DNA of 64,000 nt from a virus. This document shows, one piece after another, positions 9,167-49,273 of the stretch. Position 1 is the stretch's first letter. Each line of letters starts with the position of its first letter. The DNA lies in the IMG/VR virus record IMGVR_UViG_3300032294_002877, positions 62,001 to 126,000 of that record; one strand, given 5' to 3'. The notes beneath the pieces were generated by a model. It did no database searches, was not told where the DNA came from, and was given only the letters and a program-made list of their open reading frames with translations. Both the position numbers and the translations under genes were made by a program.

Positions 9167-9814
9167 TTATGCAAGTTTGATTAGAACTCCTAGTTCGTGG
9201 AAAATCTTAAACAATACGTATCTATCGCTATTAATATTTTGTTTGCTTATATAAGTTTCTACGGCTGCTTTTACACCAGGTAGATCTGGTCGTTCATAAT
9301 CATGAAATACAATACAGCCTCCCACAGATAGTCTTGGGTATACTAGAGATAAACTATCAAAAATACTATCATAGAAGTCTCCATCCAAAAAACCAAAAGA
9401 GATACTATCAGGGAGATCCTTGGGACCAATGTTGCTAAACCAACCTTTAGTAATAATTGGCGGAACCAAACCATTTTGTTCAAAATTAGCAATCAAAACA
9501 TCTTGTGTTGTCTTAAGTGTGCCAGATTTCCATCCTGTATTTTTTTCATAGTCACTCAATTCTGGGAGCCCCTCGAAAGAATCATAAACATATAATTTTT
9601 TATGAGATAATTTATTATCTAACATCATTCTGAGATATTTAGACGATTCCCCAACAAAACAACCAAACTCAACAACATCTCCTAGTATATTATTATTAAT
9701 AGTATTTTCTAATAACGATATGAGCATTCTAATTTGATCTTTAGATATGATACTTGCATCAATGCATTGATTAGGTCTTCGTAGTAAAAGATTAGCGGTT
9801 TGAAAGTTTATCAT
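9167..9814 (-). CDS. TylF/macrocin O-methyltransferase-like protein
   Basis: A 215-residue class I SAM-dependent methyltransferase. The start is ATG 9814, with AAGGA seven bases upstream on the minus strand. The SAM-binding motif I is VVEFGCFVGESSKYL near residue 46, followed by YVYDSFEGLPELS, the TylF-family signature. FLDGDFYDS and GGCIVFHDYE supply the metal-binding Asp/His region. These enzymes methylate sugar hydroxyls. It is the last glycan gene of the minus-strand operon, so a methyl cap on a sugar of the same glycan is likely. Confidence 0.75.
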   Translation of the reverse strand: MINFQTANLLLRRPNQCIDASIISKDQIRMLISLLENTINNNILGDVVEFGCFVGESSKYLRMMLDNKLSHKKLYVYDSFEGLPELSDYEKNTGWKSGTLKTTQDVLIANFEQNGLVPPIITKGWFSNIGPKDLPDSISFGFLDGDFYDSIFDSLSLVYPRLSVGGCIVFHDYERPDLPGVKAAVETYISKQNINSDRYVLFKIFHELGVLIKLA

Positions 9815-9815
9815 A

Positions 9816-10448
9816 TTATTCCTTAATAAAAGATCCCCACGCAACAGAGACCATTTCTTCGTGCATGAAGGGTTTAAGATTATATTTGTCTATAGATAGT
9901 TGTATATCTGAGTCTTTGATTTCGTGCCAATTCCATACTTTGCCCTTCATTGTGGTATTAAAATATTCTGTTGTTGGAGCATAGTCATGTGTCATGATTA
10001 TATCGTCTTTTTTAAGGTATTGTGATAGTATATTGAACTCACAAACTTTGCACCCTCCATCACATAGAACTATCGCTCTGCCATCAAGACCAATAAAATC
10101 AGATACTGAACTATCTATAAGTCTAGTATATGATTCATTAAAAATATTTTGTACTTTTACATCTATAGTATCCGATACCATCTCTTTATACCAAGATCTC
10201 TCAGAAATATCGTAAGATAAAATTTTGGTATTCAGATTATAGTTTCTACAAGCATAATCCAGAAAATTTGTAAATCCACCTAGAGCTGTACCTATTTCTA
10301 AAATTCTATTAGGTTTAGTTGTATGTATAAAATCCCAAAAAATACCGTATGCATGATGAGATTGTTGTGCAGAGTGATTTCTCCATGCTGACAAACCATC
10401 ATTGTTTTCTAAGTCTATTTTTCTAGTAATGTCACTATTAATACTCAT
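9816..10448 (-). CDS. CmcI-like SAM-dependent methyltransferase
   Basis: A 210-residue Rossmann methyltransferase-like protein. Motif I is ILEIGTALGGFTNFL (~49-63), acidic motif II is SYDIS, and VLCDGG then MTHDYAP follow, a pattern seen in the cephalosporin hydroxylase/CmcI and rhamnosyl O-methyltransferase group. Its stop is one base before the start of the next methyltransferase. Likely decorates a glycan together with the TylF-like enzyme. Substrate unknown. Confidence 0.65.
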   Translation of the reverse strand: MSINSDITRKIDLENNDGLSAWRNHSAQQSHHAYGIFWDFIHTTKPNRILEIGTALGGFTNFLDYACRNYNLNTKILSYDISERSWYKEMVSDTIDVKVQNIFNESYTRLIDSSVSDFIGLDGRAIVLCDGGCKVCEFNILSQYLKKDDIIMTHDYAPTTEYFNTTMKGKVWNWHEIKDSDIQLSIDKYNLKPFMHEEMVSVAWGSFIKE

Positions 10449-11152
10449 TAGAACCTCACATGTAGACGGCCTGATATATCATTAAATTCAAAACAGCTAG
10501 ATAATGATCTTAATTCTTGCCAAGAAAAAGTCATGCCAGCATCTATAACGCTCATGCCAATCTCGACGCCCTCAGCAAAAGTCCAAAGATTATTGTCTAT
10601 GCAAAATTGATTTCTATTTTTCCACGCTTCAACAAATACAGATAATTTATTGGTATTCTTAAGTATAAAAAATTGCTCATTACACACATGAGCGTTGTCA
10701 TATTTTGATGTTTCATTTAAATTATAGGGAATAATTTTATGTTTCCAAAAACATGACCACTCATCATTTTTTCCTGTTCCTATAAGATGAGGTCTTTCGA
10801 AATAAAAATCTAATGTATTGTTATCAAAAAACATATCTAGTTTGCTATAATTGTATCTTTCATGTATCCTCCAGTCAGCATCTGTATATATAATATACTC
10901 AAAATTATAATTTAGTGCTTTTTCTATAGCTTGGTATTTTAGATTATAGTTAAAGCCATTTCCAACTCTGGTAATAGTGTCGGCATCTACAGGAATTATA
11001 GTAGTATTACTAGGCACATCTAAATGAATAAGATCAGATATTATTATTCTGTGAACATCTATGTCTTTTGTTAGAAGCTCATGACTAAACTTCAAAGCGC
11101 GATCAAGATAATCTGTTCCTATCGCTAAAGTAGTATATATATATTTTTTCAT
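10448..11152 (-). CDS. GT-A type glycosyltransferase
   Basis: A 234-residue protein with a GT-A layout: N-terminal nucleotide-binding strand (KKYIYTTLAIG), LKYQAIEKAL, then the metal-binding motif YTDADW (~92-97), a later acceptor region and a C-terminal SWQELRSL. The DAD triplet is the DxD that binds the sugar-nucleotide metal. The CAZy family cannot be assigned. It overlaps the neighbouring genes by 1 and 4 bp, which shows tight translational coupling. Confidence 0.65.
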   Translation of the reverse strand: MKKYIYTTLAIGTDYLDRALKFSHELLTKDIDVHRIIISDLIHLDVPSNTTIIPVDADTITRVGNGFNYNLKYQAIEKALNYNFEYIIYTDADWRIHERYNYSKLDMFFDNNTLDFYFERPHLIGTGKNDEWSCFWKHKIIPYNLNETSKYDNAHVCNEQFFILKNTNKLSVFVEAWKNRNQFCIDNNLWTFAEGVEIGMSVIDAGMTFSWQELRSLSSCFEFNDISGRLHVRF

Positions 11153-11820
11153 AGATTTAAATCATTAAGAAAAGCTAGAGATTTTTGACATAACGGATTA
11201 TCATTTTCGTCTAGTTGTATACCTATAAAAAAAGATTTATTGTCCCTAGGAATATAATTACTAGAATTGTATTCACATCTATAAATATTAGGAGATATAT
11301 AATAATTATACACAAAGCTATTAAGCATCTCTTGGTCTTTACCCCAACCCGTATCGTTTTCAGATATAAACTTGATAAAAAACTCTTCAAAAACATTCCC
11401 AATGTTTCTCATGCCAATTAAACCCCCAGGAACCTGAGAGTGCCACGGATGGTCTCTGATAATAAAAAAGTTACTATCTGAATCTATCCAATTATCTATA
11501 TAAGTTTTTTCTCTGCTAGTCAGACGAGAATCGAGATCCCTTGCTATGCATGGAGTATTATTAAAAAAAGATAAATATCTCCAAAACATTCGGGCATTGA
11601 ATAATTTTTCTCCTAATCCAAATGAATCTGGATCAACAACCGAAACATTTCTATATGTTTTTAATTTTTTAATTGTCTCATAAGACGTTACTTTATCATT
11701 GGTATAAATGGTAACAGTCCAGTCAGGCATGATTTCGGATGCTATCTGTGCATTTTTATATGCTCCTACAACATATTTAGGATCATCTCCATAAAGACAA
11801 AAAGATATAGTTTTATTCAT
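11149..11820 (-). CDS. Putative glycosyltransferase (DxDSR type)
   Basis: A 223-residue protein beginning with ISFCLYGDD and carrying CIARDLDSRL (~91-100), where DLDSR is a metal-binding DxD-like motif, then FFIIRDHPWHS, PGGLIGMR and GWGKDQEMLN. This arrangement recurs in short glycosyltransferases of capsule loci that add a single sugar. It sits between a fucosyltransferase-like gene and another GT. The exact linkage and donor cannot be read. Confidence 0.6.
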   Translation of the reverse strand: MNKTISFCLYGDDPKYVVGAYKNAQIASEIMPDWTVTIYTNDKVTSYETIKKLKTYRNVSVVDPDSFGLGEKLFNARMFWRYLSFFNNTPCIARDLDSRLTSREKTYIDNWIDSDSNFFIIRDHPWHSQVPGGLIGMRNIGNVFEEFFIKFISENDTGWGKDQEMLNSFVYNYYISPNIYRCEYNSSNYIPRDNKSFFIGIQLDENDNPLCQKSLAFLNDLNL

Positions 11821-11821
11821 A

Positions 11822-12823
11822 TTATTTTTCTTCTATAATTTTTTCTAAAAAGTTTAACAGATATTCTTCATCGAAATATATTGGCAGTTTGTTATCTATA
11901 AAGAATGGTTCGCCAAGCATTTTTACCATTTTAGTTTTATCATTTATTAATTCGTCTAAATAAGAAAAAACATCCTCTAGACTTTGAAATTTATGACAAT
12001 TAACAAAACTGTCAGGATTGAATCCTTCATTTTCTATAAATCTATTGCCCCAGAAAATAGGAATCGTATTCGCAGCAAATGCGTGTATTATTTTTTCCTG
12101 AGTAAGATGATCAGTATCTGTATACTGAAAAGCAATATTAAAAAAACAGTCTTCAAAAAATTTAATTTTATCTCTATATACTAGTCCATCTATTTTCCCT
12201 ATATAGTTTGGATTTGAGTAATTATGATATTGACTCGTATTAAGAGTTTCTTCTGGTGAAACTGTATTTTTGAATGCTCCACTAGCTTTAATCCAGTATT
12301 TTTTTTCTATGATATCACAAAGTTTTTTTCTATCTTCATTAAAACTATTCTGGACTATACTACAAAAATATTTTTTGGTATAGAAAATTTGTCTTGCGTC
12401 TCTTTTTTGTGTTAACCAGCCGAATTTATTTTCAAACAATCCCCCTTCATTATGAAGAACGTATGCATCCAATACATACGTTGGAAATCTAAGATATCTG
12501 TCATGTTCTATGTGTTCATATCCAAGAACATAATTATTCTCTCCACGAGTCAAATGACTATGATATCCGGGATTAGCTTCTCCGCTAATGAATATCTTTT
12601 TTACATTACTGGAATAATCGCCTATTCCTCGTATCTTTTTTTTAGTAAAATAATCTATTTCATTTTCTATGTAAAATAAATTACTATATATAACTATATC
12701 AGGATTTTCGCTATCTATTACAACTTCGTATTTTAGATTCAAGATTTCAATAAAATAATTAATCCAAGAAAAATTTCCAACATTATGAAAATTAGATCTA
12801 GATATTTTAAGTAATTTCTTCAT
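11822..12823 (-). CDS. GT10 alpha-1,3/4-fucosyltransferase-like protein
   Basis: A 333-residue protein whose C-terminal half matches GT10 fucosyltransferases: FFNIAFQYTDTDHLTQEKI (~228-246), AFAANTIPIFWGN and FNPDSFVNCHKF. These are the GDP-fucose-binding blocks of the family (the usual form is YxTEKxxxA ... P.xxG ... SFI). The N-terminal half holds the more variable acceptor-binding domain. It would transfer fucose or a related deoxysugar from GDP. GDP-fucose synthesis genes are not visible in the window, so the donor would come from the host or elsewhere in the genome. Confidence 0.75.
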   Translation of the reverse strand: MKKLLKISRSNFHNVGNFSWINYFIEILNLKYEVVIDSENPDIVIYSNLFYIENEIDYFTKKKIRGIGDYSSNVKKIFISGEANPGYHSHLTRGENNYVLGYEHIEHDRYLRFPTYVLDAYVLHNEGGLFENKFGWLTQKRDARQIFYTKKYFCSIVQNSFNEDRKKLCDIIEKKYWIKASGAFKNTVSPEETLNTSQYHNYSNPNYIGKIDGLVYRDKIKFFEDCFFNIAFQYTDTDHLTQEKIIHAFAANTIPIFWGNRFIENEGFNPDSFVNCHKFQSLEDVFSYLDELINDKTKMVKMLGEPFFIDNKLPIYFDEEYLLNFLEKIIEEK

Positions 12824-12827
12824 TGGT

Positions 12828-13430
12828 CTATTGCTTTAGAAAAATCCCTGTAACCAAACCACTTTCAGACCAACGATTATCTTCGATACATTCTAATGTT
12901 TTAAAATTATTTTTTGTAAATATGTCTGCAAGATTTTGACTATTGAAATAATTTACATGAGCAGGATCATTGTAGCATTTTTCGTAAGGTACGCACACTA
13001 TAATATGTCCACCGCTCTTAAGACTGACATAAAATTTTTGTAAGATATAATCCAAATCTTCTGGATATATATGCTCTAACGTATGAAATGTATAGATTGT
13101 ATCAAAATAGTTATCAAAATTTTCATTCAAAAAATTGCCAGATAAAAATTTGACTTTATCTATTTTAAGTTTCTCTTTAGTTTCGATAGCTAGTGATATT
13201 GAATTCTCATTTATATCATAACCTATAACTGAATCAATTGAGCCAATTTCGCTAAGTAAAAAAGTGCAGGCGCCATGATTACAGCCAAAATCTAGGACAT
13301 GCCCTTTCGCTATGTCTGAATAATGTCTCATAATTTGGCCATTAGGATGATCTCTCCATTTATCTGGAATAGGATCTCTTGTTATGTACTGTTCTTTTTC
13401 TTTATATTTTATTATGTCTATATTCGTCAT
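12828..13430 (-). CDS. SAM-dependent methyltransferase
   Basis: A 200-residue class I methyltransferase. Motif I is VLDFGCNHGACTFLL (~45-59), motif II is VIGYDINENSIS, and motif IV is FDTIYTFHTLEHI with a post-motif SGGHIIVCVPYE. It is of the small-molecule Methyltransf_11/23 type. It overlaps the upstream GT60 gene by 4 bp and sits 4 bp before the GT10 gene, so it probably modifies a sugar in the same glycan. Confidence 0.7.
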   Translation of the reverse strand: MTNIDIIKYKEKEQYITRDPIPDKWRDHPNGQIMRHYSDIAKGHVLDFGCNHGACTFLLSEIGSIDSVIGYDINENSISLAIETKEKLKIDKVKFLSGNFLNENFDNYFDTIYTFHTLEHIYPEDLDYILQKFYVSLKSGGHIIVCVPYEKCYNDPAHVNYFNSQNLADIFTKNNFKTLECIEDNRWSESGLVTGIFLKQ

Positions 13431-14701
13431 AGGTTTCCTGTTATCCTTTCACACCAACCTTTGCTCTTGCTGAAAGGCCAAACGACCCAATATTTTGGTT
13501 TAACGGCAGTTGGGAATTCTCTCCAAACTTTACAATAATTATCCGGATCATGTTTCATACTATTTATTTCGTTTATATCAGCATCTTTTCGATACAGAGT
13601 ATTATCATTCTCATCATGGAAAGCAACTACCCAAAATTCGTAATCATTTTCTGGAACTTGACTATACTGAATATCTATGCAGTGCTTAAAGATACTAGAA
13701 AAACTACTCATCCAATCTTCTTCGCTATTAAACACATAGGGGTTGGGTGGGTATTGTTTATCTAAAGTATATTGCTGAACAGCTCTTTTAGAAAAAAGAA
13801 TTCCAGCATATTTTTCATAATCTCTTAAAGATCTTTCGGTGCCAAATCCATATATTCCATCGTGGCCCTCTTGTTTTTCTCCATCCATTCCAAAAAGTTT
13901 TCTGTTAGTTAAGTGAGAGGTATTGTTTTTTTCTCCCCATTTAGGATCATCATCCCATTGTTTTGTTCGTCCTTTTCTTGTATATTCATGCCATATAAGA
14001 GCCTTATGAGGATGAAATAGATCATAGCCATAAGTAAATGCTCTGACCCCAACACTGATCTCCTCGCCATGGAAATAGTAATTAGGATTATGCTGGACTT
14101 CTTTGCTAAATTGTCCAAGAGTGAAACAGAAGTGAGCCGAATAAAATCTTGCCGGGACCGGAGAGTCTAATGATTCATGATTAGGTATAGTTTCCGGTAG
14201 AAAGAAAACAGCACCCTCTGGAATAAATCTATCAAAAACCATCCTCCAAGGTTCCCTCGCTCTGCCAGCCGGATCGTTGTTGGGATCAAAAGACGATACG
14301 TACCCTGTAAGTAGGGGTTTTTTGTACCCTTTGGTCTGTAAACTCTCTATCATCTCAATAAATTCAGTATCCCAATTTTTAGCAAATCTCATATGGGAAT
14401 CTATTTGCATAGTATATTTTTCATCTTTATATAATTGCTGAACTTGATGCCGAGCCCAACACACACCTTTAGATTCTTTATATGGGATATTTAATATTCT
14501 GAATCTGTTATCCTGTTCATATTTATCTAGATTATCAAATTTATCTTCAGGATGATATTGTCTTGCTATCCCAAAAACAAGATTTTCTGGATTAGAAGCA
14601 TTATTTAATGCATCTTCAATAGTCAGAACTAATTGAGGATCCCTATAAGAAGCTATTTGTATAAAAATAGTATCAGTTTTCTTTTCTTGCGTTTGATTCA
14701 T
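13427..14701 (-). CDS. GT60-type GlcNAc transferase
   Basis: The 424-residue protein matches the GT60 family (Skp1 hydroxyproline-GlcNAc transferase domain). Visible are IFIQIASYRDPQ (12-23), KGVCWARHQVQ (78-88), MQIDSHMRFAKNWD (98-111) with a DSH metal-binding motif, ARFYSAHFCFT, and FHGEEISVGVRAFTYGYD. In eukaryotes the family adds GlcNAc to hydroxyproline; in bacteria and viruses it appears in glycan loci with undefined acceptors. The C-terminal ~110 residues are outside the core. It raises the possibility that a protein is the acceptor. Confidence 0.8.
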   Translation of the reverse strand: MNQTQEKKTDTIFIQIASYRDPQLVLTIEDALNNASNPENLVFGIARQYHPEDKFDNLDKYEQDNRFRILNIPYKESKGVCWARHQVQQLYKDEKYTMQIDSHMRFAKNWDTEFIEMIESLQTKGYKKPLLTGYVSSFDPNNDPAGRAREPWRMVFDRFIPEGAVFFLPETIPNHESLDSPVPARFYSAHFCFTLGQFSKEVQHNPNYYFHGEEISVGVRAFTYGYDLFHPHKALIWHEYTRKGRTKQWDDDPKWGEKNNTSHLTNRKLFGMDGEKQEGHDGIYGFGTERSLRDYEKYAGILFSKRAVQQYTLDKQYPPNPYVFNSEEDWMSSFSSIFKHCIDIQYSQVPENDYEFWVVAFHDENDNTLYRKDADINEINSMKHDPDNYCKVWREFPTAVKPKYWVVWPFSKSKGWCERITGNL

Positions 14702-16322
14702 AAAAGTGAACTCTGTTGTGAAAGATTGGACTAGCTAATAATATTGCCGAAGAAACCTTCTTATCTCTTGTTAAAGAATATATGTGACTCATCCATGTTT
14801 GTTCAAACGGATAGGCCCATGTTGTATCAAGGAATAACTTTTGATTACCCTTCTGACCTATAATATGAGGCCAATTACAATAGTAAATTTCTCCATCAAC
14901 ATACGGGTTTCCGTTTATCGTTTTTATGTTATTAAATACTGTGTTTGGTTTGCTATTTATGTTACCAAAATATTCTATCTTTTTGTCGTGTGGTAAATTA
15001 TGCCAACTCCATTGTTCTCCGTTATGACCATAAAATTCACTAAATGAAAATTTTAGAAAATCATAATCTTCTTTATCCATAATTTTTATTAGAGTATCGA
15101 ATAAATTATTTACTTTTCTTTTGAATCCGAAACCACAAGTTTCATCTATTTCCATTCTTAGTAACATATCGTCTTCAAAAAACATCATATACTGGGATTG
15201 GCTATCTCTAAAGTGTTCTGCGGCTCTTTGTCTTGCTCTGCATATTCCTAAGTTTCCTTCACGTATTTCTTCTACAAAATCGTATTTTCCTATTATCTCT
15301 TCGTAGGCAGGAAACAGTTCTTCTTCAGTTGTGTTGTTTATTAGTATCTTTTTGGTATTATTGAGGAATTTTTGATCATATTTTTCAAATGAATCAAGTA
15401 CCATCTGTAATTGTTCAGGCGAATTAAATGCATTTATATATAGAAGAATATCTTCATTTTTGTGAATAGAATCTTTTCTTTTGATTTGTAATTGTGTCTT
15501 TTCTGTTTTTACATTTTCAAAAAACGTATTAATAAGACCATCACTATTGATCATTTCGTGTTGAAAAATATCTGGTTTTAGATATGTCATCAACGTAAAA
15601 ATACTTTCCTCAGTACCCATAAATCCTTGATTAAGAGTATCATTTAATAATGAATAGTATAGATCGTTTGCCGAAGATATGTAGTCTTTATGGCCACCGA
15701 AGAACCCTCCTCTAGCCACTCTATTGACATTCATATCACATATGTTGTTCATCTTATTAATATCGAAACCGTGTATTTCGCTATTTGTTTCGTAAGGGAA
15801 ACATACAAACAAGAATTTTTTTACAAATTTCTCTATTTTGTCTACAACATTATCACTACTAAAGTATCCGGTATGAACAGTATTACTTATTCCTCCGTCT
15901 AGCCAAAAGTAGTAGTCAGAATCAAATGGGTTGTATAGTTTAGCGTTATGCAAGAGAAACATTTTACTCATAACCATAGGATTATACCATTCCATGGTTG
16001 CTTGAGTACTATCTCTAAGCCACCCAGCTTGAGCCAGCCACGCTTCATTCTGTCTTATTGCTTGTATTTTATCGAAAAATGGAAAAAATCCACCAGAAAA
16101 ATCCTCTTTTCTATGAGGATAAACTACTGTATTGGATCTATCTCGTACCTTCCAAACCATATCTTCTAGAGATGGATCTATAAATATAGCAAGATTGATA
16201 TTTTTAACAGATAATAGGTCGTTAAACTTTGATATATAGTGGTCAAAACCCCTAGACCAACCTTGTGAAAGATCGCCCCTACCTAGATCCCATATACCTG
16301 TGACAATAGTAGTGGAGCGCAT
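14673..16322 (-). CDS. Two-domain glycosyltransferase: HtrL/YibB-like plus GT-A
   Basis: A 549-residue fusion. The N-terminal ~280 residues resemble the HtrL/YibB family: STTIVTGIWDLGRGD (3-17), LAIFIDPSLEDMVWKVRDR, NPMVMSKMFLLHNA and YYFWLDGGISNTVH. The C-terminal ~270 residues are a second GT-A domain with ILLYINAFNSPEQLQMVLDS, GNLGICRARQRAAEH and the metal-binding FFEDDMLL. It is the first gene of the minus-strand glycan operon, transcribed from the promoter at 16368-16396, and overlaps the GT60 gene by 29 bp. One polypeptide may add two consecutive sugars. Confidence 0.7.
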   Translation of the reverse strand: MRSTTIVTGIWDLGRGDLSQGWSRGFDHYISKFNDLLSVKNINLAIFIDPSLEDMVWKVRDRSNTVVYPHRKEDFSGGFFPFFDKIQAIRQNEAWLAQAGWLRDSTQATMEWYNPMVMSKMFLLHNAKLYNPFDSDYYFWLDGGISNTVHTGYFSSDNVVDKIEKFVKKFLFVCFPYETNSEIHGFDINKMNNICDMNVNRVARGGFFGGHKDYISSANDLYYSLLNDTLNQGFMGTEESIFTLMTYLKPDIFQHEMINSDGLINTFFENVKTEKTQLQIKRKDSIHKNEDILLYINAFNSPEQLQMVLDSFEKYDQKFLNNTKKILINNTTEEELFPAYEEIIGKYDFVEEIREGNLGICRARQRAAEHFRDSQSQYMMFFEDDMLLRMEIDETCGFGFKRKVNNLFDTLIKIMDKEDYDFLKFSFSEFYGHNGEQWSWHNLPHDKKIEYFGNINSKPNTVFNNIKTINGNPYVDGEIYYCNWPHIIGQKGNQKLFLDTTWAYPFEQTWMSHIYSLTRDKKVSSAILLASPIFHNRVHFYESNARKEN

Positions 16323-17202: not shown

Positions 17203-17760
17203 ATGAAACCTAGAATGGCTGAGAAATATTCAAATATTATTTATACCAATCAAGATATATTTCATAATGCGACTCAAAGAATACTTGGAGGTAATAATGG
17301 AGCTACTGTCTTTATTCCTCATGTATGTAATAATCTAGATATGTTCGGAGCCGGATTTGCTGCTCAAGTTGCGGACAGATACCCTTCTGTAAAAGCCGAT
17401 TACCATATGTTGGGTAGGAATTTTCTAAAAAATAATTTCGGATACGCCCAAATACTTAAAGTTAATGAAGATTCTAAATATAAACATAAGCTATATATAG
17501 TAAATATGATAGCACAAAATGGCATAAAAAATATCACCAACCCAAGACCTCTGCACTACCCTGCTCTGGTTAGAAGCATGACTCAGATAGCACAATTCAT
17601 AAGCGCCAACACAGGATTCCTAAACAAAACAGAAAATGTAGAAATACATGCTCCAAAATTTGGTAGTGGATTAGCTGGAGGAAATTGGAATTTTATACAT
17701 GACCTCATTGTTGATACTTGGGGCAAATTTTTTGTAACAATCTATAACTACAAGAAATAA
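17203..17760 (+). CDS. Macro domain protein
   Basis: A 185-residue protein similar to macro domains of the Poa1/ADP-ribose-1''-phosphate phosphatase type. Visible are FIPHVCNNLDMFGAGFAAQV (the ligand-binding Asn and glycine loop, ~37-56), YIVNMIAQNGI (~104-114), RPLHYPALVRSM and HAPKFGSGLAGGNW (the second phosphate loop). Macro domains bind or hydrolyse ADP-ribose derivatives. In a phage it could remove ADP-ribose marks, process tRNA-splicing by-products, or counter ADP-ribosyl-based defence. Context (next to glycan genes) does not decide. Confidence 0.75.
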   Translation: MKPRMAEKYSNIIYTNQDIFHNATQRILGGNNGATVFIPHVCNNLDMFGAGFAAQVADRYPSVKADYHMLGRNFLKNNFGYAQILKVNEDSKYKHKLYIVNMIAQNGIKNITNPRPLHYPALVRSMTQIAQFISANTGFLNKTENVEIHAPKFGSGLAGGNWNFIHDLIVDTWGKFFVTIYNYKK

Positions 17761-19570: not shown

Positions 19571-19571
19571 T

Positions 19572-20210: not shown

Positions 20211-20214
20211 TACA

Positions 20215-22361: not shown

Positions 22362-22375
22362 AGAGCAAGAATAAT

Positions 22376-40786: not shown

Positions 40787-40788
40787 AT

Positions 40789-41121: not shown

Positions 41122-41822
41122 ATATAGCAATTTGTTTTTTTGGACAAGTTAAAAATTTTTCGGTTGATTTATACAACAATTATATTAGCAATATTTATGA
41201 TAAAGTACAAGTTTTTTCTCATGATTATTTTTTAATAACATGGAATAATAAGCATATAGATAACCCAAGAAACCGAGAGAACATCGATATAGACTATACT
41301 TCTATCTTGCCATTTTTCAACTTTGTAAAGACTAATATTTTGGATATAGATTCTGATTGCACTAAAACGATAGACGCATATAGTGATTTGTTAGTATCCA
41401 AATATGGAGGATCATGGGGAGAAAATAGTATTCTTAGCACAAGGTTCGGCTTAAGACAACCGTACTCTCTGCAAATTATGAAACAAGAATTCGAACAGTA
41501 TCCAATAAAATACGATAAGTATATTCTACTAAGACCAGACTTATGGTTCAATAGCCCTCTGCCCACAGACTGTTTAAACAAAAATTATGATCTGTGTATT
41601 CCTGATTTCGATTCTTATGGAGGATATAACGATAGATTTGCCGTAACCTCATACAACGGTATGCTCGCTTATTGTAATAGATATAGAGCTATGTTATCTG
41701 AATCTAAAAAATATCATAGCGAGAATTTCTTAAAAGAATATACAGATAAGCAAAATATTAATATCAAAAAAATAGATAATTTTACATTCCAAAGAGTTCG
41801 ATCAGGCCACAATACACAATGA
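41118..41822 (+). CDS. Putative glycosyltransferase with RPD motif
   Basis: A 234-residue protein beginning MNIAICFFGQVKNF, with TRFGLRQPYSLQIMKQEF (~110-127), YDKYILLRPDLWF (~133-145) and SYGGYNDRFAVTSYNGM (~165-181). The RPD plus NDRF pattern is the same as in the proteins at 19572 and 21582. The group is found in polysaccharide loci and is probably a GT-A-like family. Coupled by 4-bp overlaps on both sides. Confidence 0.55.
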   Translation: MNIAICFFGQVKNFSVDLYNNYISNIYDKVQVFSHDYFLITWNNKHIDNPRNRENIDIDYTSILPFFNFVKTNILDIDSDCTKTIDAYSDLLVSKYGGSWGENSILSTRFGLRQPYSLQIMKQEFEQYPIKYDKYILLRPDLWFNSPLPTDCLNKNYDLCIPDFDSYGGYNDRFAVTSYNGMLAYCNRYRAMLSESKKYHSENFLKEYTDKQNINIKKIDNFTFQRVRSGHNTQ

Positions 41823-42301
41823 CTATTAATACCACTCATATAAAAGATTGTATCTATACCATACCAAACTTATTTACCGATAATCGTGGTATTTTCTCAG
41901 AAATCTTTAAAAGCTCCAAACTCACAGGATTTATACCAAAACAGTTAAATTACAGCTATTCGCATTTTGGTGTTTTTAGAGGTATACACAGAACACCATA
42001 CGCTAAACTAGTAACGTGTGTTAGTGGAGCTGTATATGATATATGTGTAGATTTAAGAGAAGAAAGTCTAACATATGGCGAATACTTCGGCTTAGAACTC
42101 AATTCTGATAAATTGAATTCTTTATATATACCTCCGTATTGTGGTCATGGATTTTTGGCCTTAAAAAATAGCGTGCTGGTGTATGCTCAAGAAGACGAGT
42201 ATATGCCAGACAAAGACGAGGCCCACTGCTACAAAAATTTTGGTATACAACTACCTTTTGATCCAAAAATAATTTCTCAAAAAGACATCTCTCAGTGCTA
42301 A
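41819..42301 (+). CDS. RmlC-like dTDP-4-dehydrorhamnose 3,5-epimerase
   Basis: A 160-residue cupin-fold epimerase. Motifs: DNRGIFSEIFKSS (21-33), PKQLNYSYSHFGVFRGIHR (~40-58) with the catalytic-type His, KLVTCVSGAVYDICVDLREE, YGEYFGLEL and IPPYCGHGFLAL (~98-109). This matches RmlC, which inverts C3 and C5 of the 4-keto sugar. Slightly shorter than RmlC (about 180). With the RmlB-like gene it gives two steps of a dTDP-6-deoxyhexose pathway; the final reductase is not seen in the window. Confidence 0.8.
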   Translation: MTINTTHIKDCIYTIPNLFTDNRGIFSEIFKSSKLTGFIPKQLNYSYSHFGVFRGIHRTPYAKLVTCVSGAVYDICVDLREESLTYGEYFGLELNSDKLNSLYIPPYCGHGFLALKNSVLVYAQEDEYMPDKDEAHCYKNFGIQLPFDPKIISQKDISQC

Positions 42302-42317
42302 TATAAGGACTAATGAT

Positions 42318-42839
42318 ATGGCCCATAAAGAACAAAAAGATTATCTAATATCAATTAAAGAAAAATTTTTAGATAAATTTAATAACTGTTCTGTCTTAGA
42401 TATAGGATCGTTAGACATTAACGGAAATAATAGATATCTATTCACCGATTATTCCTATATTGGTATAGATATAGGTTCTGGTAAAAACGTAGATGTAGTA
42501 TGCCCAGGACATCTATATAAACCAAATCAAAAATTTGATATAGTTATTAGCACAGAATGTTTTGAGCATGATGAGCATTATCGTGAAACAATAATAAACG
42601 CTATAGATCTTACAAAATCTGGAGGAATGTTTATTTTTTCGTGTGCTACCACAGGCAGACCCGAACACGGAACAAAAAAATCTTCCCCATCATCCAGTCC
42701 TTTTACTAACGAATACTATAAAAATCTAACAGAAACTGACATTCGTGATATTCTAATTATAGAAGATGTATTCTCTATATATGAATTTTCTGTCAATAAT
42801 AAACATAAAGATCTTTATTTCTATGGCATCAAAAAATAA
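42318..42839 (+). CDS. SAM-dependent methyltransferase
   Basis: The 173-residue protein has SVLDIGSLDINGNNRYLF (~25-42) as motif I, YIGIDIGSGKNVD as motif II, and FDIVISTECFEHDEHYRET (~76-94) as motif IV, typical of small class I methyltransferases. SGGMFIFSCATTGRPEHG follows. Upstream AAGGAC lies before the ATG. It is in the third glycan operon and likely methylates a sugar. Confidence 0.7.
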   Translation: MAHKEQKDYLISIKEKFLDKFNNCSVLDIGSLDINGNNRYLFTDYSYIGIDIGSGKNVDVVCPGHLYKPNQKFDIVISTECFEHDEHYRETIINAIDLTKSGGMFIFSCATTGRPEHGTKKSSPSSSPFTNEYYKNLTETDIRDILIIEDVFSIYEFSVNNKHKDLYFYGIKK

Positions 42840-43488
42840 TACGTCTAATATTTTAGTTGCGATTGTAAACTATAATTTTAGTGACAATGCGGATTTCTTA
42901 AAAAAAAAATTCCAAAATAAATTTCCTACTATTATTATAGATTCTTCGTCTAAAACACATCCCAATGGTGTTGATTTTATCATAGAGAACCAATATTATA
43001 CAGGTCAATGGAATTGTGCGGTCAATAAAGCTATTGATAATGGGTATGATTGGCTATTTTTCATTGCCTCAGATCTGACTTTTATTATTGATCAAGATAT
43101 AGATATAATTATTAAAGATATTATTGCTAATAATAGTATAGGTATTTATACGCCGTCTGTTGACAAAGAATCAAGATGCTCATTTACAGATTTATTTAAT
43201 CAAAACACCAATAATATAAGGTATACAAATTTAGTAGAAGGTTTTTGTTTTTTAGCGAGAACACAGATTCTGAAACATATGTACCCTGTAAATTATTCAC
43301 AAAATAAGTACGGCTGGTGTCTAGACACAACGATGTGCGATATATGTACAAAAAAGAGATATAAAATAGTAGTAGATGATAGAATAGTAATACATCATCC
43401 ACAATCACTAACGTCTATTGATAGAAATTTAGCAAGTATTCAGTGTAATGAGTATAGAGGATTGTTTGCTGGTAAAACATATGAATAG
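42823..43488 (+). CDS. GT2-like glycosyltransferase
   Basis: From ATG 42823 the protein has 221 residues and overlaps the methyltransferase by 17 bp; the longer frame from 42766 lies inside that gene. It has ILVAIVNYNFSDN (~10-22), IIIDSSSK, YTGQWNCAVNKAIDNGYDWL (~57-76) and FFIASDLTFI, where SDL takes the DxD place. NKYGWCLDTTMCDIC and IHHPQS close the acceptor region. Small GT2 enzymes of this kind add one sugar. Confidence 0.65.
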   Translation: MASKNNTSNILVAIVNYNFSDNADFLKKKFQNKFPTIIIDSSSKTHPNGVDFIIENQYYTGQWNCAVNKAIDNGYDWLFFIASDLTFIIDQDIDIIIKDIIANNSIGIYTPSVDKESRCSFTDLFNQNTNNIRYTNLVEGFCFLARTQILKHMYPVNYSQNKYGWCLDTTMCDICTKKRYKIVVDDRIVIHHPQSLTSIDRNLASIQCNEYRGLFAGKTYE

Positions 43489-44413
43489 TGACAAAAAATA
43501 TTACGTTATTAAAGGGAATTGTGGATTTAATGATTTTTTATGTACATTTTTGCGATCATGTCAAGATATTGAATATATTCAAAAGCTAGGGATTGATTTA
43601 TGGCCAGTAATACAATGGGAACAAGTAGATTCAAATTTTTGGAAGATTTTTAATATATCAGATAGAATTTTGAACACAGGCCTACTTCATGACGAAGCTA
43701 TTGAGTACAATAAGTGCATACAGTCCGTTGCTGGTAGCGAAGCTATAAATTTCGATACTATAGCTAGTTCAAATAGACAATGGGATTATATTATTCGTCA
43801 TAATATTGGCGGGGCATTTAATCTACACAATTTATTTTTTCAGTATCTGTGTTTGACCAATACATTCAGAGACTATCTTAGAGAAAAATATATTCGTATC
43901 AAAAACAATGATGGATATATAGCTATTCATTATAGAATATCTGATTATTTTATAAAATACTATAAAAACGATATTGTTAATAATAATGAGTTATTTAGTC
44001 GTAAATATACAGATTATATAAATAAATGTTGTGATTATATAAATAATAAAGCAAAAAATAATAAGATATTACTATGTACAGATAATCTAGATATTATTCT
44101 TAGATGTGTTGATAACATAAAAATATTCAGCTTTAGCTTTTCTAAAACACTCATATTAGATAAGGGTATAGACGCCAATAGTTTTGATCAATTTCATGGG
44201 ATACATATCAATAAATATTATGAATCCTTCAATATCTCTAGTTATGATCTATATCTGAATACTTATTTAGATTATTTCTTAATGGTATTATCTGACGAGT
44301 TAATTGTATCAGATTTGGGCCAGTTCAGTAAAAGCGCTGCTAAATTAAAGAATTTCTTAAAATTAGAATATGGCAATGATTATGCTCAAAAAATATTTGA
44401 GAAAACTATATGA
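43481..44413 (+). CDS. Fucosyltransferase-like protein
   Basis: From ATG 43481 the 310-residue protein contains IAIHYRISDYF (~147-157), like the GDP-fucose-binding HxRxxD motif of alpha-1,2/alpha-1,6 and protein O-fucosyltransferases, followed by KILLCTDN and ELIVSDLGQFSKSAAKL (~276-292), which corresponds to the conserved SxFS segment. The remaining sequence is divergent. It overlaps both neighbours (8 and 4 bp). A GT10-type fucosyltransferase is also encoded at 11822, so fucose-like sugars may be used twice. Confidence 0.55.
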   Translation: MNSDKKYYVIKGNCGFNDFLCTFLRSCQDIEYIQKLGIDLWPVIQWEQVDSNFWKIFNISDRILNTGLLHDEAIEYNKCIQSVAGSEAINFDTIASSNRQWDYIIRHNIGGAFNLHNLFFQYLCLTNTFRDYLREKYIRIKNNDGYIAIHYRISDYFIKYYKNDIVNNNELFSRKYTDYINKCCDYINNKAKNNKILLCTDNLDIILRCVDNIKIFSFSFSKTLILDKGIDANSFDQFHGIHINKYYESFNISSYDLYLNTYLDYFLMVLSDELIVSDLGQFSKSAAKLKNFLKLEYGNDYAQKIFEKTI

Positions 44414-45279
44414 AATTACAAAGACCAGGATACACAGAAACAGATTTATTATTTTGTCACTATCTCAAGAATATAGGGATTTATGACAGTATTGTTAAAG
44501 ATACTGAAGAAAATTTTGTATTATGGTTATATAGTACAGCCGGATGGTACGATAATTCATTACCATATAGTGGTCCAAAGTTTTTTCATAAATACAAAGA
44601 TAGATCAGAAGTTTCAAGAGTATTATTAAATAGTGATGTTTATAAATTTTGGATAGATAAATACTATCATAGCGTTACAAATGCTGATTTTATAATTCCA
44701 TTATGTCATAAAAGCAATTTTAAAGATCATTATGAAAATCATTTCCACAACTTTATAGATTCTCTAATGCCTAAAAATAAAGTAAATACTCAATTTGATA
44801 ATTTTTGGTGTGTTTACAGAAACATATATCCTATTATTGAAAACAAAAAACTATTAGTCGTAAGTAGTTTTGCTAAGCTAATTGACGATCAATATACGTC
44901 TAATAATATATACAAAATATATTCTAGCTTTCCACAAATACAACAACTTATCACCTATAGGTTTCCATACACATTTTTTAATAGAGGTCCAGACCAAAAT
45001 AGTATAGAAACTTTACATAAAATCTATAATGATATCAAACAATATGATTTTGATGTATTATTAATTGGCGCCGGATGCTACGGATGTATATTAACAGATA
45101 TGGTAAACGATTTAGGAAAAACAGGAATAACGATTGGTCATCATATAAGTGATTTTTTCGGTATCAATCCACTTAAAAAGAATGAGTATTGGATATACAA
45201 CATTCCAGACGAATATATACCAGAAGGATACGAACACATAGACCACGGCAAATACTGGAAACCAACGGATGCTAAATGA
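44410..45279 (+). CDS. Putative GT-D-like glycosyltransferase
   Basis: A 289-residue protein with a C-terminal Rossmann-like segment FDVLLIGAGCYGCILTDMV followed by GKTGITIGHHISDFFGI (~213-250). That order (LxGAGxxG, then a strand with GxxIGxHxSDFFG) resembles proteins of the GT-D fold (DUF1792 type) found in glycan loci. The N-terminal ~200 residues are not recognised. Coupled to the fucosyltransferase-like gene and overlapping the GT90 gene by 11 bp. Confidence 0.5.
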   Translation: MKLQRPGYTETDLLFCHYLKNIGIYDSIVKDTEENFVLWLYSTAGWYDNSLPYSGPKFFHKYKDRSEVSRVLLNSDVYKFWIDKYYHSVTNADFIIPLCHKSNFKDHYENHFHNFIDSLMPKNKVNTQFDNFWCVYRNIYPIIENKKLLVVSSFAKLIDDQYTSNNIYKIYSSFPQIQQLITYRFPYTFFNRGPDQNSIETLHKIYNDIKQYDFDVLLIGAGCYGCILTDMVNDLGKTGITIGHHISDFFGINPLKKNEYWIYNIPDEYIPEGYEHIDHGKYWKPTDAK

Positions 45280-46309
45280 ATCTTTAGATTTTTTCTTATC
45301 TAGATACTCAAGTGAAAATAAAAATACTGATTATATATCCGAGGAAACCCTTGGTGATCTACTAGTTAAACACAATTTAAAAAATAAGTATCCGCCGGAC
45401 TTTGCAATTTTTACTATAAATACAGACCTTAATGTTATCTGTACTAATAGAGATAAGATCAGACTAGACACCAGAATAATTCTATATGAAAATTATTTTA
45501 AAAAGTTACTTATAAAGTATGGTATTAGCATACATAAAAGCATTACATTTTTAATTGATCTGAGCGATGGTTGTCAGAATAGAGACTTTTTATTTGATAT
45601 AGACAAGATTTGTTTAGCTCCAAGTATACCTAACAGAAAAGAGTTGGGCTCTTTACCAATATCAGATCCTCATTATCTTCACCCTAACTATCGTAAATAT
45701 TACGATAAATCTGTTGAATTGAGTAAATTGACATGGAAAGAAAAAAATAATAAATTCCTATACAGAGGAACCGTAAGACCCACATTAAGACCAGATATAA
45801 GAGAAGGATCTAGTTGGATAACACCAAGACTAGACTTTTGTAAAAAATATTGTGACAACCAATACCTAGATATAGGTTTTCCTCCACCAAATACAACAGA
45901 GGTATGGCAAAAAGACTATATACCATACTTTAAAGAAAAATTATCCAGAGAGCAGATGTCTTCATATAAATATAACATTATTATTTCTGGTATAGGAGGT
46001 AATTTTGACGCATTTATTTGGTTGATTCTTAGCAACACAACCTTACTCAGAATGTGCGATAAAGAACAAGATCATTCGTTGGCTCCGGATTATCCATATT
46101 GGCTTTTATGGTTTGACTCTTTGTGTAAACCTTATGAGCACTATGTTCCATTTAATATTGATAATTTTGATACCATTATTACTTGGTGCTTGAATAACGA
46201 AAGCGTATGTGAAAAAATCGCTAATAATGCGCAAAAATTATACGATACTATTATAGACAAATGGGATGATTACAATATTTCTGTGATTAAATTTTTAATA
46301 GATCTATGA
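45269..46309 (+). CDS. GT90 (CAP10-like) glycosyltransferase
   Basis: The 346-residue protein shows GT90/CAP10 features: WKEKNNKFLYRGTVRPT (~157-173) corresponding to the FxRG motif, RPDIREGSSWITPRLDF, a middle YIPYFKEKLSREQMSSYKYN (in part ~210-228), then IIISGIGGNFDAFIWLILSN (~229-248) for the sugar-nucleotide site and YEHYVPFNIDNFD. It is diverged from the GT90 at 18608, so duplication is not recent. Acceptor unknown. Confidence 0.7.
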   Translation: MLNESLDFFLSRYSSENKNTDYISEETLGDLLVKHNLKNKYPPDFAIFTINTDLNVICTNRDKIRLDTRIILYENYFKKLLIKYGISIHKSITFLIDLSDGCQNRDFLFDIDKICLAPSIPNRKELGSLPISDPHYLHPNYRKYYDKSVELSKLTWKEKNNKFLYRGTVRPTLRPDIREGSSWITPRLDFCKKYCDNQYLDIGFPPPNTTEVWQKDYIPYFKEKLSREQMSSYKYNIIISGIGGNFDAFIWLILSNTTLLRMCDKEQDHSLAPDYPYWLLWFDSLCKPYEHYVPFNIDNFDTIITWCLNNESVCEKIANNAQKLYDTIIDKWDDYNISVIKFLIDL

Positions 46310-46316
46310 GACATAA

Positions 46317-47144
46317 ATGCATAATATTTGTATAATAAGAAATACTTTTAATGACAGAAGCTCATTCTTGAAGCTATCACTAGAGTACCAGCAAAGCGCT
46401 ATTCAGCCAACACATGCTTTTCCTACTTTTATCTTTTTGGATCCACACCCAGAATACGGTCTATCCAAATCCTACAATGATGAGTATATAAATAAATTTC
46501 CAAAAATAGTTTTTGAAAATTATAAAAACAGAATGAGTTGGTATTTAGCAACAAAATATATGTTTGATAATTACCAATTTGATTATATATTATCTATAGA
46601 AGATGATGTTTTGATTAGTAAAGACTACCTATTAATGTGTGAACAAGTAGTTAAAGATGATATACTCAATAAAAAAGAAAACGCACTATATTTTCACATA
46701 GGAGCATGGGAAGAACCTACTGGAGACCCCAATAAGATAGTATATTCAGGAGCATCTAGTAGATCTATTTTAATCAATAGGAATAAGTTTTCGGTTATAC
46801 AAGACCACATGCTTGGCAACACTGAACATAATCCAAAAATAGGAAATGACGCTATGATAACACAGATACTAAAATCTCATAATATGAGAACCATAGCGCC
46901 TAAATGTAATAGACATGCTCATATAGGAATATATGGTTGGAGCAGCAACGGTGTTCATGCAGATAATAGGGGCAAGAGTAGCGTTTTTGATAACGGAATT
47001 TCTGACAACGAATTGTATCTGATACTAAAACGAAGCTGTTTGCACAAAAATAAATTACTTGAACTAAATCAACAAAAAAATCCCCAATATTTTTGGGACT
47101 TTAATCCCGATATCAATTTTACACAACTGGTTTATCAACTATGA
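46317..47144 (+). CDS. GT-A glycosyltransferase (EDD motif)
   Basis: A 275-residue GT-A protein with NICIIRNTFNDRSSFLKLS (3-21), YQFDYILSIEDDVLISKDYL (~85-104) bearing the metal-binding Glu-Asp-Asp, SGASSRSILINRNKF, GNDAMITQIL and HIGIYGWSSNGVH (~197-209). The EDD and the closing His-Gly-Trp elements recall GNT-I-like enzymes. It overlaps the next gene by 4 bp. Confidence 0.65.
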   Translation: MHNICIIRNTFNDRSSFLKLSLEYQQSAIQPTHAFPTFIFLDPHPEYGLSKSYNDEYINKFPKIVFENYKNRMSWYLATKYMFDNYQFDYILSIEDDVLISKDYLLMCEQVVKDDILNKKENALYFHIGAWEEPTGDPNKIVYSGASSRSILINRNKFSVIQDHMLGNTEHNPKIGNDAMITQILKSHNMRTIAPKCNRHAHIGIYGWSSNGVHADNRGKSSVFDNGISDNELYLILKRSCLHKNKLLELNQQKNPQYFWDFNPDINFTQLVYQL

Positions 47145-49273
47145 AATGGAGATCGTCGGAATACTCTGTAGCGCTATTCAAACAATTAGAGTTTTTGTTA
47201 CCAGAAGATTTTGATTACCAGACATATATAGACCTACACCCTGATCTTATAGCGGCAGAAATAGATAATGAACAAAAAGCCAAAGAACATTATTTATTTT
47301 TTGGAAGAAAAGAGGGTAGAGCCTATAAAATATTATCCTATGAGTATTCGGTAGATGATACCGATTCATATGAGATATGGAACAATGACAACAATAATAT
47401 TATGGTGTTCTCCCCTACTGCACCAGATTACGATTGTAGCAGTGGAGGGAATAGGCTGTATGAGTTATTAAAAATACTCAAATTACTACAATATAATGTT
47501 TATTTTTTTTGTAATACTATTATTGATTTAAAATATAAAAAAGCAGTAAAAGATTTGGGTATAAATATTTATTATCCCAATATCGATGACGGTATTTATA
47601 TGGATAAATATATAGAGGACTTAAAAGTATCTAATGTTTATTTTGACAATGTTATATTTTGTTGGTATGATATAGGCAATCAGTATATAGATATAGTGAA
47701 ACAATACTATCCAAATATCAAAATTATAGCGGACAGTGTTGACGTACACTGGATACGAGAGCAAAGAGGAAAAGATAATGGAGAATTATCTATATCTCAA
47801 ATGTCTCTTGACCACAGGCAAAATATTGAGATGCAGGTTTATAGAAAATCTAATGTGGTCTTGGCTATAACATCAGAAGATAAACGACACATAGAACAAG
47901 AACTAGGAGATAAAATAAATACTAAAATTTTAAGTAATATTCATCATAAGCAATTTGGACCGTTAGGACCAAACATATTTTTTATAGGTAATTATAATCA
48001 TTATCCGAATATACAAGGAGCAATAGAATCTATAAAAATTTTTGATGTTTTTAGTCGTTCTCAAACCTATTTCAATCTTAAGCAAAAACCTAAACTATTA
48101 ATAGTCGGACCAAATATAGATAACAGAGTGTTGTCTCATATACATACAGACAATATAGAAGTGTGTGGTAAAATAGAAGATCTAGAATCTTTATACTCCC
48201 AAAGCTGTTTATGTTTGAGTCCACTTTACTGGGGAGCGGGAATCAAGGGTAAAATTTGCGATAGCGCCATGAGAGGTATTCCAATTTTAACCACGCCTAT
48301 TGGGAATGAAGGAATTAACTTTATTAACAATCAACATGCTATGATTGGTAATACAACAGAGGATATGGTGGAACATATGATTAATTTTTTCAGCATGTCA
48401 TACGAACAAAAAATAGAGCTTGGAAGAAGAGGACAAGAATATATTGAAAACATAGTAGGTTTAAAAGCGGCTGTTGAAACTATTCAATCTGTTCTTGAAG
48501 AAAAACATATTGTAATAAGCATAGTCGCTTATAGTCAGACAGAAAAACTATATAGGTGTCTTGAGACAATATTCGACAAAGCAAAATATTCGAACTTTAC
48601 TGTTGTTGTCACAGATAATAGCTCGGATAGTACGATATACGAAACAATAAAACCGTTTGCTATTAGACATAATTTCATATACAAAAAGAATGTGTCCAAT
48701 AGATACTTCATAGAGCCTAATAACGATGTTATGTTCGATCCTAAGTATCTCAATTCTGACGTTGTTTTGGTCAATGATGATATAGAAATTTTATCTGATG
48801 GATGGCTGAATTATTTGTATTCCTCCGCATATTCGGAACCAAAAATAGGAGCAGTGGGTGGCAAAACTCTATATCCCAACTATACAATAGCAGAAGCTGG
48901 TGCTGAATTGTATTCAGATGGTACTGGTAAGAACTTGTATAGACATTATCCTAACGATGAGCCATTGGCAAATATCAGAAAAAGTGTAGGTTATTGTTCA
49001 GGGTGTCTGTTGTATTTGAAAAGGTCCGTCATAGACGAAATAGGAGTATTTGATACAGATTTAGAAAAAATGTATTATGAAGATAGCGAATGGCAATATA
49101 GAGCTCATACAAAAGGATTCAAAACAATCTATGAACCAAGATGTGTCGCTATACATCACGAGGGATCGTCTAGTGGTACGGATATCAATAAGGGAACTAA
49201 AAAATATCAAGCTATCAATCAAAAAATATTTGTAAAGAAGTACAAAAATCTCAACATCGAGCAATATAACTAG
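47141..49273 (+). CDS. Two-domain glycosyltransferase: GT4-like plus GT2
   Basis: At 710 residues this is the largest complete gene of the window. Residues ~15-60 carry the DYQTYIDLHPDL ... HYLFFGRKEGR module common at the start of phage and capsule glycosyltransferases. Residues ~80-445 form a GT-B (GT4-like) domain with FSPTAPDYDCSSGGNRLYEL and LSPLYWGAGIKGKICDSAMR. Residues ~450-700 form a GT2 domain with ISIVAYSQTEKLYRCLETIF, VVLVNDDIEIL (metal site), CSGCLLYLKRSVIDEIGVFD and MYYEDSEWQYRAHTKG. It ends the third glycan operon and may add two sugars in sequence. Confidence 0.8.
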   Translation: MKWRSSEYSVALFKQLEFLLPEDFDYQTYIDLHPDLIAAEIDNEQKAKEHYLFFGRKEGRAYKILSYEYSVDDTDSYEIWNNDNNNIMVFSPTAPDYDCSSGGNRLYELLKILKLLQYNVYFFCNTIIDLKYKKAVKDLGINIYYPNIDDGIYMDKYIEDLKVSNVYFDNVIFCWYDIGNQYIDIVKQYYPNIKIIADSVDVHWIREQRGKDNGELSISQMSLDHRQNIEMQVYRKSNVVLAITSEDKRHIEQELGDKINTKILSNIHHKQFGPLGPNIFFIGNYNHYPNIQGAIESIKIFDVFSRSQTYFNLKQKPKLLIVGPNIDNRVLSHIHTDNIEVCGKIEDLESLYSQSCLCLSPLYWGAGIKGKICDSAMRGIPILTTPIGNEGINFINNQHAMIGNTTEDMVEHMINFFSMSYEQKIELGRRGQEYIENIVGLKAAVETIQSVLEEKHIVISIVAYSQTEKLYRCLETIFDKAKYSNFTVVVTDNSSDSTIYETIKPFAIRHNFIYKKNVSNRYFIEPNNDVMFDPKYLNSDVVLVNDDIEILSDGWLNYLYSSAYSEPKIGAVGGKTLYPNYTIAEAGAELYSDGTGKNLYRHYPNDEPLANIRKSVGYCSGCLLYLKRSVIDEIGVFDTDLEKMYYEDSEWQYRAHTKGFKTIYEPRCVAIHHEGSSSGTDINKGTKKYQAINQKIFVKKYKNLNIEQYN

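What the first reader, a model, noticed from the sequence alone, without database searches (positions are those of the whole stretch)
9167..49273. Very large glycan-building capacity: about 19 glycosyltransferases in three operons
The window encodes GT10, GT60, two GT90, GT4, GT2, YibB, RgpF-like and other GT-A proteins, 5 methyltransferases, RmlB- and RmlC-like enzymes and a HAD-nucleotidyltransferase. That is far more than needed to modify phage DNA and enough for one or more branched glycans with fucose- or rhamnose-like sugars. The targets could be capsid or tail proteins, or replacement of host surface glycan.
Basis: partly seen in the sequence, partly recalled or inferred. Interest (0 to 1): 0.6.

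Follow-up and report, generated by a model that had tools for sequence, protein, structure and literature searches.

The report
Phage sugar-coating genes for mucin-like fibres
This large uncultured virus of bacteria carries its own kit for building complex sugar chains, and comparison with related viruses suggests the kit coats the virus's own threonine- and proline-rich surface proteins in the way mucins are made, with sugar-adding genes that differ from one related virus to the next.

Summary
Three same-strand gene runs at 9167-49273 carry 9 glycosyltransferase (GT) proteins with family hits (one, the GT90, is below its cut-off), about 10 more GT candidates that no library confirms, 5 methyltransferases, RmlB- and RmlC-like enzymes and a HAD-nucleotidyltransferase. 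The window belongs to a 180-kb myophage-like viral contig, not a host chromosome. Relatives show a conserved core (GT60, YibB, a GT4, RgpF, a GT4-GT2 fusion) with three hypervariable islands; island 3 is absent from a syntenic relative. The key gene is GT60 (13427-14701), of the family that starts mucin-type O-glycans on threonine. It has the family's invariant DxH motif, and its predicted fold is nearest to polypeptide GalNAc-transferases. In many relatives, Thr/Pro-repeat genes (TPTNTVTPTNT...) lie directly upstream of GT60 on the same strand. GT60 occurs in 20/40 TPT-repeat contigs, against 2/26 random and 1/25 collagen-repeat contigs. This genome has five or six such proteins, outside the window. 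Cultured XacN1 carries GT60 and YibB, and glycoproteins were reported in it. The genome shows no polytopic membrane protein and no dCMP hydroxymethylase. Best reading: phage-encoded mucin-type glycosylation of Thr/Pro-rich proteins, probably in the virion; not biochemically shown.

The parts
13427..14701 (-). GT60 (PF11397), predicted polypeptide O-GlcNAc-transferase; the proposed initiator
   Evidence: Pfam 224 bits vs cut-off 21; invariant D101-S102-H103 (DxH) in 22 homologues; AlphaFold model pLDDT 87, best PDB folds polypeptide GalNAc-transferases; 35 viral contigs
14673..16322 (-). YibB/HtrL protein with a second C-terminal domain; tandem GT-A-like, proposed extender; conserved partner of GT60
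   Evidence: PF09612; in 40 of 57 GT60 loci, always on the same strand with same-strand genes between; fold resembles LARGE1, chondroitin polymerase, LH3
9167..13430 (-). Hypervariable island 1: TylF-type and two other methyltransferases, GT10, two proteins without family hit
   Evidence: replaced by 3 other genes in G006 and 5 (one a 42% homologue of 9816) in G007 at the same site
8676..9125 (-). Short protein bordering island 1, conserved
   Evidence: 34% in G006, 51% in G007; signal peptide-like N-terminus in relatives seen by eye
17203..17760 (+). Conserved border protein of island 2
   Evidence: 54% in G006, 68% in G007
17763..18611 (+). CAP59/GT69-like glycosyltransferase
   Evidence: PF11735 31.8 bits vs 28.8; 50% in G006
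18608..24553 (+). Hypervariable island 2: HAD+nucleotidyltransferase fusion (20215-21585), FkbM methyltransferase (22376-23008), DUF7796-related protein and unassigned proteins
   Evidence: a single other gene in G006, six unrelated genes in G007
24778..26650 (+). Nucleoside deoxyribosyltransferase-like and IMPDH/GMP-reductase genes, conserved border of island 2
   Evidence: 70-78% in G006/G007
26651..27709 (+). GT4 glycosyltransferase, conserved core
   Evidence: PF00534 63.5 bits; 58% in G006 and G007
38868..39806 (+). RgpF-like glycosyltransferase, conserved border of island 3
   Evidence: PF05045 43.9 bits; 50% in G006
39803..47144 (+). Island 3: RmlB-like, RmlC-like, methyltransferase, DUF7796-related, GT-D-like, GT90-like (weak) and unassigned proteins
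   Evidence: absent from G006, where the RgpF homologue (151569-152507) abuts the GT4-GT2 homologue (149400-151559)
47141..49273 (+). GT4+GT2 bifunctional glycosyltransferase, conserved core
   Evidence: PF13692 and PF13641/PF00535; 59% in G006

Best explanation
The phage encodes a cytoplasmic protein-glycosylation system of mucin type. GT60 (13427-14701) puts the first sugar, probably alpha-GlcNAc, on threonines of Thr/Pro-repeat domains (TPTPTxTPT) of phage-encoded proteins, most likely surface fibres or adhesins of the virion. The tandem YibB enzyme and the other core GTs extend the chain. The variable islands add and modify outer sugars (6-deoxy sugars, O-methylation), so each phage lineage would carry a different glycan, which might shield the particle or serve in attachment. 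Shown here: gene content, conservation pattern, GT60 family motif and predicted fold, and association and adjacency of GT60 with Thr/Pro-repeat genes across relatives. Inferred: the chemistry, the acceptor, the virion location and the biological role.
For: GT60 is the family of pp-alphaGlcNAcTs that start mucin-type glycans on Thr (PMC8724618, PMC9472816, PMC3769586); GT27/GT60 carry DxH instead of DxD (PMC7185993), invariant here; nearest solved folds are polypeptide GalNAc-transferases. Thr/Pro-repeat gene on the same strand directly upstream of GT60 in 7 of 21 lineages found by GT60 and 10 of 16 found by repeat; within three genes upstream in 11/21 and 13/16; within three genes downstream 0/21 and 0/16; permutation p about 0.0009 and 5e-5. 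GT60 in 20/40 TPT-repeat contigs vs 2/26 random (Fisher p 4e-4) and 1/25 collagen-repeat contigs. TPTxTPTxTP pattern in 20/27 GT60 records including this one (15 hits) and XacN1, reversed control 0; in random contigs only in G069, which has GT60. Repeat domains are 45% Thr, 22% Pro, 5% Ser, near T. cruzi mucins at 46-54% Thr. Only XacN1, CM1 and RAS14 of 50,697 phages carry GT60, and the same three carry full-length YibB; glycoproteins reported in XacN1. No polytopic membrane protein. GlmS for GlcNAc supply in this genome.
Against: In the window's own lineage GT60 is not adjacent to a repeat gene; the candidate acceptors lie about 84-100 kb away near the contig end. Half of the TPT contigs have no GT60 seen (many are fragments, but some exceed 100 kb). 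GT60-positive G001 (219 kb) has no Thr/Pro-repeat protein. Related phages are not independent observations. The text read does not say which XacN1 proteins are glycosylated. The repeat proteins are virion proteins by neighbourhood only. GlmS is absent from the 23 other GT60 records tested.
Confidence: 0.5

Rival explanations
1. Virion glycosylation of another kind: the system glycosylates capsid, tail tube or fibre proteins at sites other than Thr/Pro repeats, and the repeat genes are neighbours by chance of ancestry.
For: Mycobacteriophage capsid and tail tube proteins are glycosylated (cited in PMC12619734); some GT60 lineages lack repeat genes.
Against: Upstream but never near-downstream placement of Thr/Pro-repeat genes and the enrichment against collagen-repeat and random contigs.
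Confidence: 0.2
2. Host surface modification: the enzymes remodel or replace host LPS/capsule glycans during infection, as proposed for cyanophage clusters.
For: Cyanophage clusters with GTs, epimerases and cupin isomerases were read this way (PMC7824862); RgpF, GT4 and RmlB/RmlC-like enzymes also occur in surface polysaccharide loci; variability between relatives fits either reading.
Against: No polytopic membrane protein in G000, G006 or G007, so no flippase, polymerase or ligase of its own; GT60 is a polypeptide transferase family. The contig is partial, and soluble GTs could act on host lipid-linked intermediates.
Confidence: 0.2
3. DNA hypermodification: the GTs attach sugars to modified bases of the phage genome.
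For: Phages are known to glycosylate DNA; a dCMP deaminase, RNR and an IMPDH-like enzyme are encoded.
Against: No dCMP hydroxymethylase/ThyA family (PF00303) in G000 or G006; GT60 and YibB resemble protein and polysaccharide enzymes.
Confidence: 0.05
4. The window is a host chromosome capsule locus or a binning chimera.
For: Capsule-type enzymes; DUF1501-type proteins elsewhere on the contig.
Against: Phage replication genes on both sides; long synteny with independent viral contigs G006 and G007.
Confidence: 0.02

Closest known systems
GT60 pp-alphaGlcNAc-transferase systems of Trypanosoma cruzi and Dictyostelium (mucin-type O-glycosylation)
   Same: Same Pfam family PF11397, DxH motif, nearest fold GT27; Thr-rich, Pro-containing repeat candidate acceptors
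   Different: Phage genome, cytoplasmic rather than Golgi; extension enzymes differ (YibB, GT10, GT4-GT2); activity untested
Xanthomonas phage XacN1 (ORF334 GT60, ORF330 YibB) and Stenotrophomonas phages CM1, RAS14
   Same: Homologous GT60 (43-45% by tblastn) and YibB (39-40%); Thr/Pro-repeat proteins in XacN1 and RAS14; glycoproteins reported in XacN1
   Different: The XacN1 paper lists only two GTs, and the islands of the window are not seen in the stretches examined; the link to Thr/Pro repeats was not noted there
Mycobacteriophage virion glycosylation
   Same: Phage-encoded GTs acting on virion proteins
   Different: Capsid and tail tube C-termini, few GTs, no GT60 or Thr/Pro repeats reported in what I read; the primary paper was not held
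Chlorovirus PBCV-1 glycan machinery
   Same: A virus encodes most of its own machinery to build a capsid glycan independent of host secretory glycosylation (cited in PMC5852040)
   Different: Eukaryotic algal virus; acceptor is the major capsid protein
Cyanophage LPS/capsule-type clusters (P-SSM2)
   Same: Clustered GTs with epimerases, variable between relatives
   Different: Read as host surface modification; no GT60 or Thr/Pro-repeat link described in the passages read

Membership tests
GT60 (PF11397) | Profile match over the curated cut-off | tested here: met
   224.2 bits vs 21
GT60 (PF11397) | DxH in place of DxD, shared with GT27 (PMC7185993) | tested here: met
   D101-S102-H103 invariant in 22 sequences
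GT60 (PF11397) | GT-A fold close to polypeptide GalNAc-transferases | tested here: met
   Top PDB hits ppGalNAc-T2, T4, PGANT9, E about 1e-9, TM about 0.47
GT60 (PF11397) | Transfer of alpha-GlcNAc from UDP-GlcNAc to Thr or hydroxyproline | not testable with these tools
   needs enzymology
Mucin-type O-glycosylation | Dense Thr/Ser/Pro-rich acceptor domains encoded in the same genome | tested here: met
   G000 162707-180135, domains 41% Thr, 24% Pro
Mucin-type O-glycosylation | O-glycans on those domains | not testable with these tools
   needs mass spectrometry of a cultured relative
Virion glycosylation system of phages | Acceptor is a virion protein | tested here: inconclusive
   Repeat proteins lie among large structural-type genes, some with weak head/virion PHROG hits; no proteome for this phage
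Host surface polysaccharide (Wzx/Wzy or LPS) cluster | Membrane flippase, polymerase or ligase | tested here: not met
   No polytopic membrane protein in G000, G006, G007 by hydropathy; contig partial
DNA glucosylation via hydroxymethylated pyrimidine | dCMP/dUMP hydroxymethylase (PF00303) | tested here: not met
   absent from G000 and G006
Dictyostelium Skp1-type hydroxyproline glycosylation | Prolyl 4-hydroxylase encoded with GT60 | tested here: not met
   PF13640 absent from G000; only 2 of 14 records

The most novel reading that the evidence does not exclude
A widespread group of mostly large aquatic phages makes true mucins: GT60 starts dense O-glycans on Thr/Pro-repeat virion fibres, YibB extends them, and swappable GT islands give each lineage its own glycan coat, making these the first prokaryotic viruses known to carry out mucin-type O-glycosylation.
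Probability: 0.42. Interest if true: 0.85.

Novelty: new variant of a known kind. Interest (0 to 1): 0.68.

Why it matters
Phage virion glycosylation is documented in few systems, and what phage GT clusters act on is an open question usually answered as DNA or host surface. This gives a named initiator (GT60), a named acceptor type (TPT repeats), a cultured model (XacN1) and a clear test. If right, mucin-type O-glycosylation extends to prokaryotic viruses, and the variable islands would be sets of glycan-coat genes with a role in shielding or attachment.

Tried and rejected
Skp1-type hydroxyproline glycosylation: no prolyl hydroxylase with GT60 in most records. DNA modification: no PF00303 in G000/G006. 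Sequence search of the PDB with GT60 and YibB profiles gave nothing useful. Families for the unassigned island proteins: Pfam, PHROGs and NCBIfam at loose thresholds gave nothing firm, and two of them had no phage match. GlmS as a general partner of GT60: only in this genome. Cellular GT60 loci as a wider test: only 10 repeat genes of 677 near 58 loci, so the repeat link is mainly a phage feature. Literature searches found no report linking phage GT60 and Thr/Pro repeats in the held papers.

Full report
What it is. The window is bases 62001-126000 of a 180,460-base viral record. It carries rIIB, clamp loader, ribonucleotide reductase, UvsX, DnaB helicase, primase and exonuclease genes of a large T4-like phage. 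Two independent viral contigs, G006 (224 kb) and G007 (59.5 kb), are syntenic with it. It is therefore not a host capsule locus.

Observation. Pfam supports eight GT proteins over cut-off plus a weak GT90, five methyltransferases, RmlB- and RmlC-like enzymes and a HAD-nucleotidyltransferase fusion. Ten more GT candidates, needed to reach 19, are weak (two DUF7796-related proteins) or without any convincing hit (eight). The two-GT90 claim fails: one of the pair has no hit and does not resemble the other. More capacity lies outside the window: a GT4 at genome 129857-131521 and a full-length GlmS (744 bits) at genome 2876-4759.

Conserved core, variable islands. GT60, YibB, the GT4 at 26651, RgpF at 38868 and the GT4-GT2 fusion at 47141 are kept at 50-79% in the relatives that cover them. 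Between them lie three islands with conserved borders. Island 1 (9167-13430) is replaced by three other genes in G006 and five in G007, of which one is a 42% homologue of 9816. Island 2 (18608-24553) is a single other gene in G006 and six unrelated genes in G007. Island 3 (39803-47144) is missing from G006, where RgpF abuts the GT4-GT2 gene. The islands have about 30% G+C against 34-36% elsewhere.

The initiator. GT60 was found in 35 further viral contigs. Among 50,697 phage records it is found only in XacN1, CM1 and RAS14, and the same three have full-length YibB. GT60 is the family of pp-alphaGlcNAcTs that start mucin-type glycans in T. cruzi and Dictyostelium (PMC8724618, PMC9472816, PMC3769586). 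GT27 and GT60 share a DxH motif in place of DxD (PMC7185993); here it is D101-S102-H103, invariant in 22 sequences. The model (pLDDT 87) has polypeptide GalNAc-transferases as best solved folds. YibB models as two GT-A-like domains, with LARGE1, chondroitin polymerase and LH3 as nearest folds.

The proposed acceptor. In relatives the usual order is Thr/Pro-repeat gene(s), GT60, one to five variable GT or methyltransferase genes, YibB, all on one strand. YibB is in 40 of 57 loci, always co-directional with GT60. In 21 lineages found by GT60 alone, the gene directly upstream is a same-strand repeat gene in 7, and one lies within three genes upstream in 11, never within three downstream (p about 0.0009). 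In 16 lineages found by the repeat pattern the numbers are 10, 13 and 0 (p 5e-5). The repeat domains are 45% Thr, 22% Pro and 5% Ser. This genome carries five such proteins by the stricter 40-residue test and six by the 24-residue test, at 162707-180135, outside the window.

Association tests. GT60 is in 20 of 40 contigs of at least 40 kb picked by a TPTNT DNA pattern, in 2 of 26 random contigs (Fisher p 4e-4), and in 1 of 25 picked by a collagen-like GPx pattern. The TPTxTPTxTP pattern is in 20 of 27 GT60 records, with the reversed pattern in none. Among random contigs it is in one only, which is one of the two with GT60. Related contigs are not independent, so these p-values overstate the strength. 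Exceptions exist: G001 has GT60 and no repeat protein, and half of the repeat contigs show no GT60.

Virion or host. The XacN1 paper reports at least two glycoproteins detected by proteomic analysis and suggests the phage GTs, including ORF334, which is the GT60 homologue (PMC5852040). The text read does not name the glycosylated proteins. XacN1 has a 676-aa Thr/Pro-repeat protein beside a gene annotated as structural. G000, G006 and G007 show no polytopic membrane protein, which argues against a self-contained surface polysaccharide pathway. No PF00303 enzyme is present in G000 or G006, which argues against hydroxymethyl-based DNA glycosylation.

Verdict. Protein glycosylation of the virion is the most likely use (about 0.65 to 0.7 in all), with mucin-type O-glycosylation of Thr/Pro-repeat proteins as the specific mechanism (0.5). 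The chemistry, the acceptor and the role are inferred. Phage virion glycosylation and GT60 mucin-type initiation are each known. Their combination with Thr/Pro-repeat genes was not found in the held literature, hence a new variant of a known kind.

Noticed in passing
L037:2876-4759 (genome 2876-4759, outside window): Full-length GlmS (744 bits), the first committed enzyme towards UDP-GlcNAc, in this phage contig; absent from 23 other GT60-positive records.
   Followed up: yes
L039:9280-12404 and genome 54146-55387: A DUF1501 protein (337 bits) beside a VWA-like protein, and a second DUF1501-like paralogue (25%); unusual for a phage.
   Followed up: no
window 24778-26650: Nucleoside deoxyribosyltransferase-like and IMPDH/GMP-reductase genes conserved at 70-78% in relatives; possible nucleotide modification or salvage.
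   Followed up: no
window 7740-8675 and L037:4829-6394: Two subtilase-family protease paralogues (31%) in the genome; the first borders island 1.
   Followed up: no
window 37385-38257: Trypsin-like peptidase present here but without a match in G006 at the syntenic site.
   Followed up: no
G069 (180,934-base viral record): 109 matches to the TPTxTPTxTP DNA pattern, many of them upstream of GT60; an extreme case of the repeat arrangement.
   Followed up: partly
G001:101311-101607 near GT60 at 105304: A 2OG-Fe(II) prolyl-hydroxylase-type domain about 4 kb from GT60 in a phage with no Thr/Pro-repeat protein; possibly a hydroxyproline variant.
   Followed up: no
L382 (Jiulongibacter sediminis), L376, L392, L404: Bacterial chromosomes and MAGs also carry GT60 beside or near YibB; L382 has a divergent repeat gene next to it.
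   Followed up: partly
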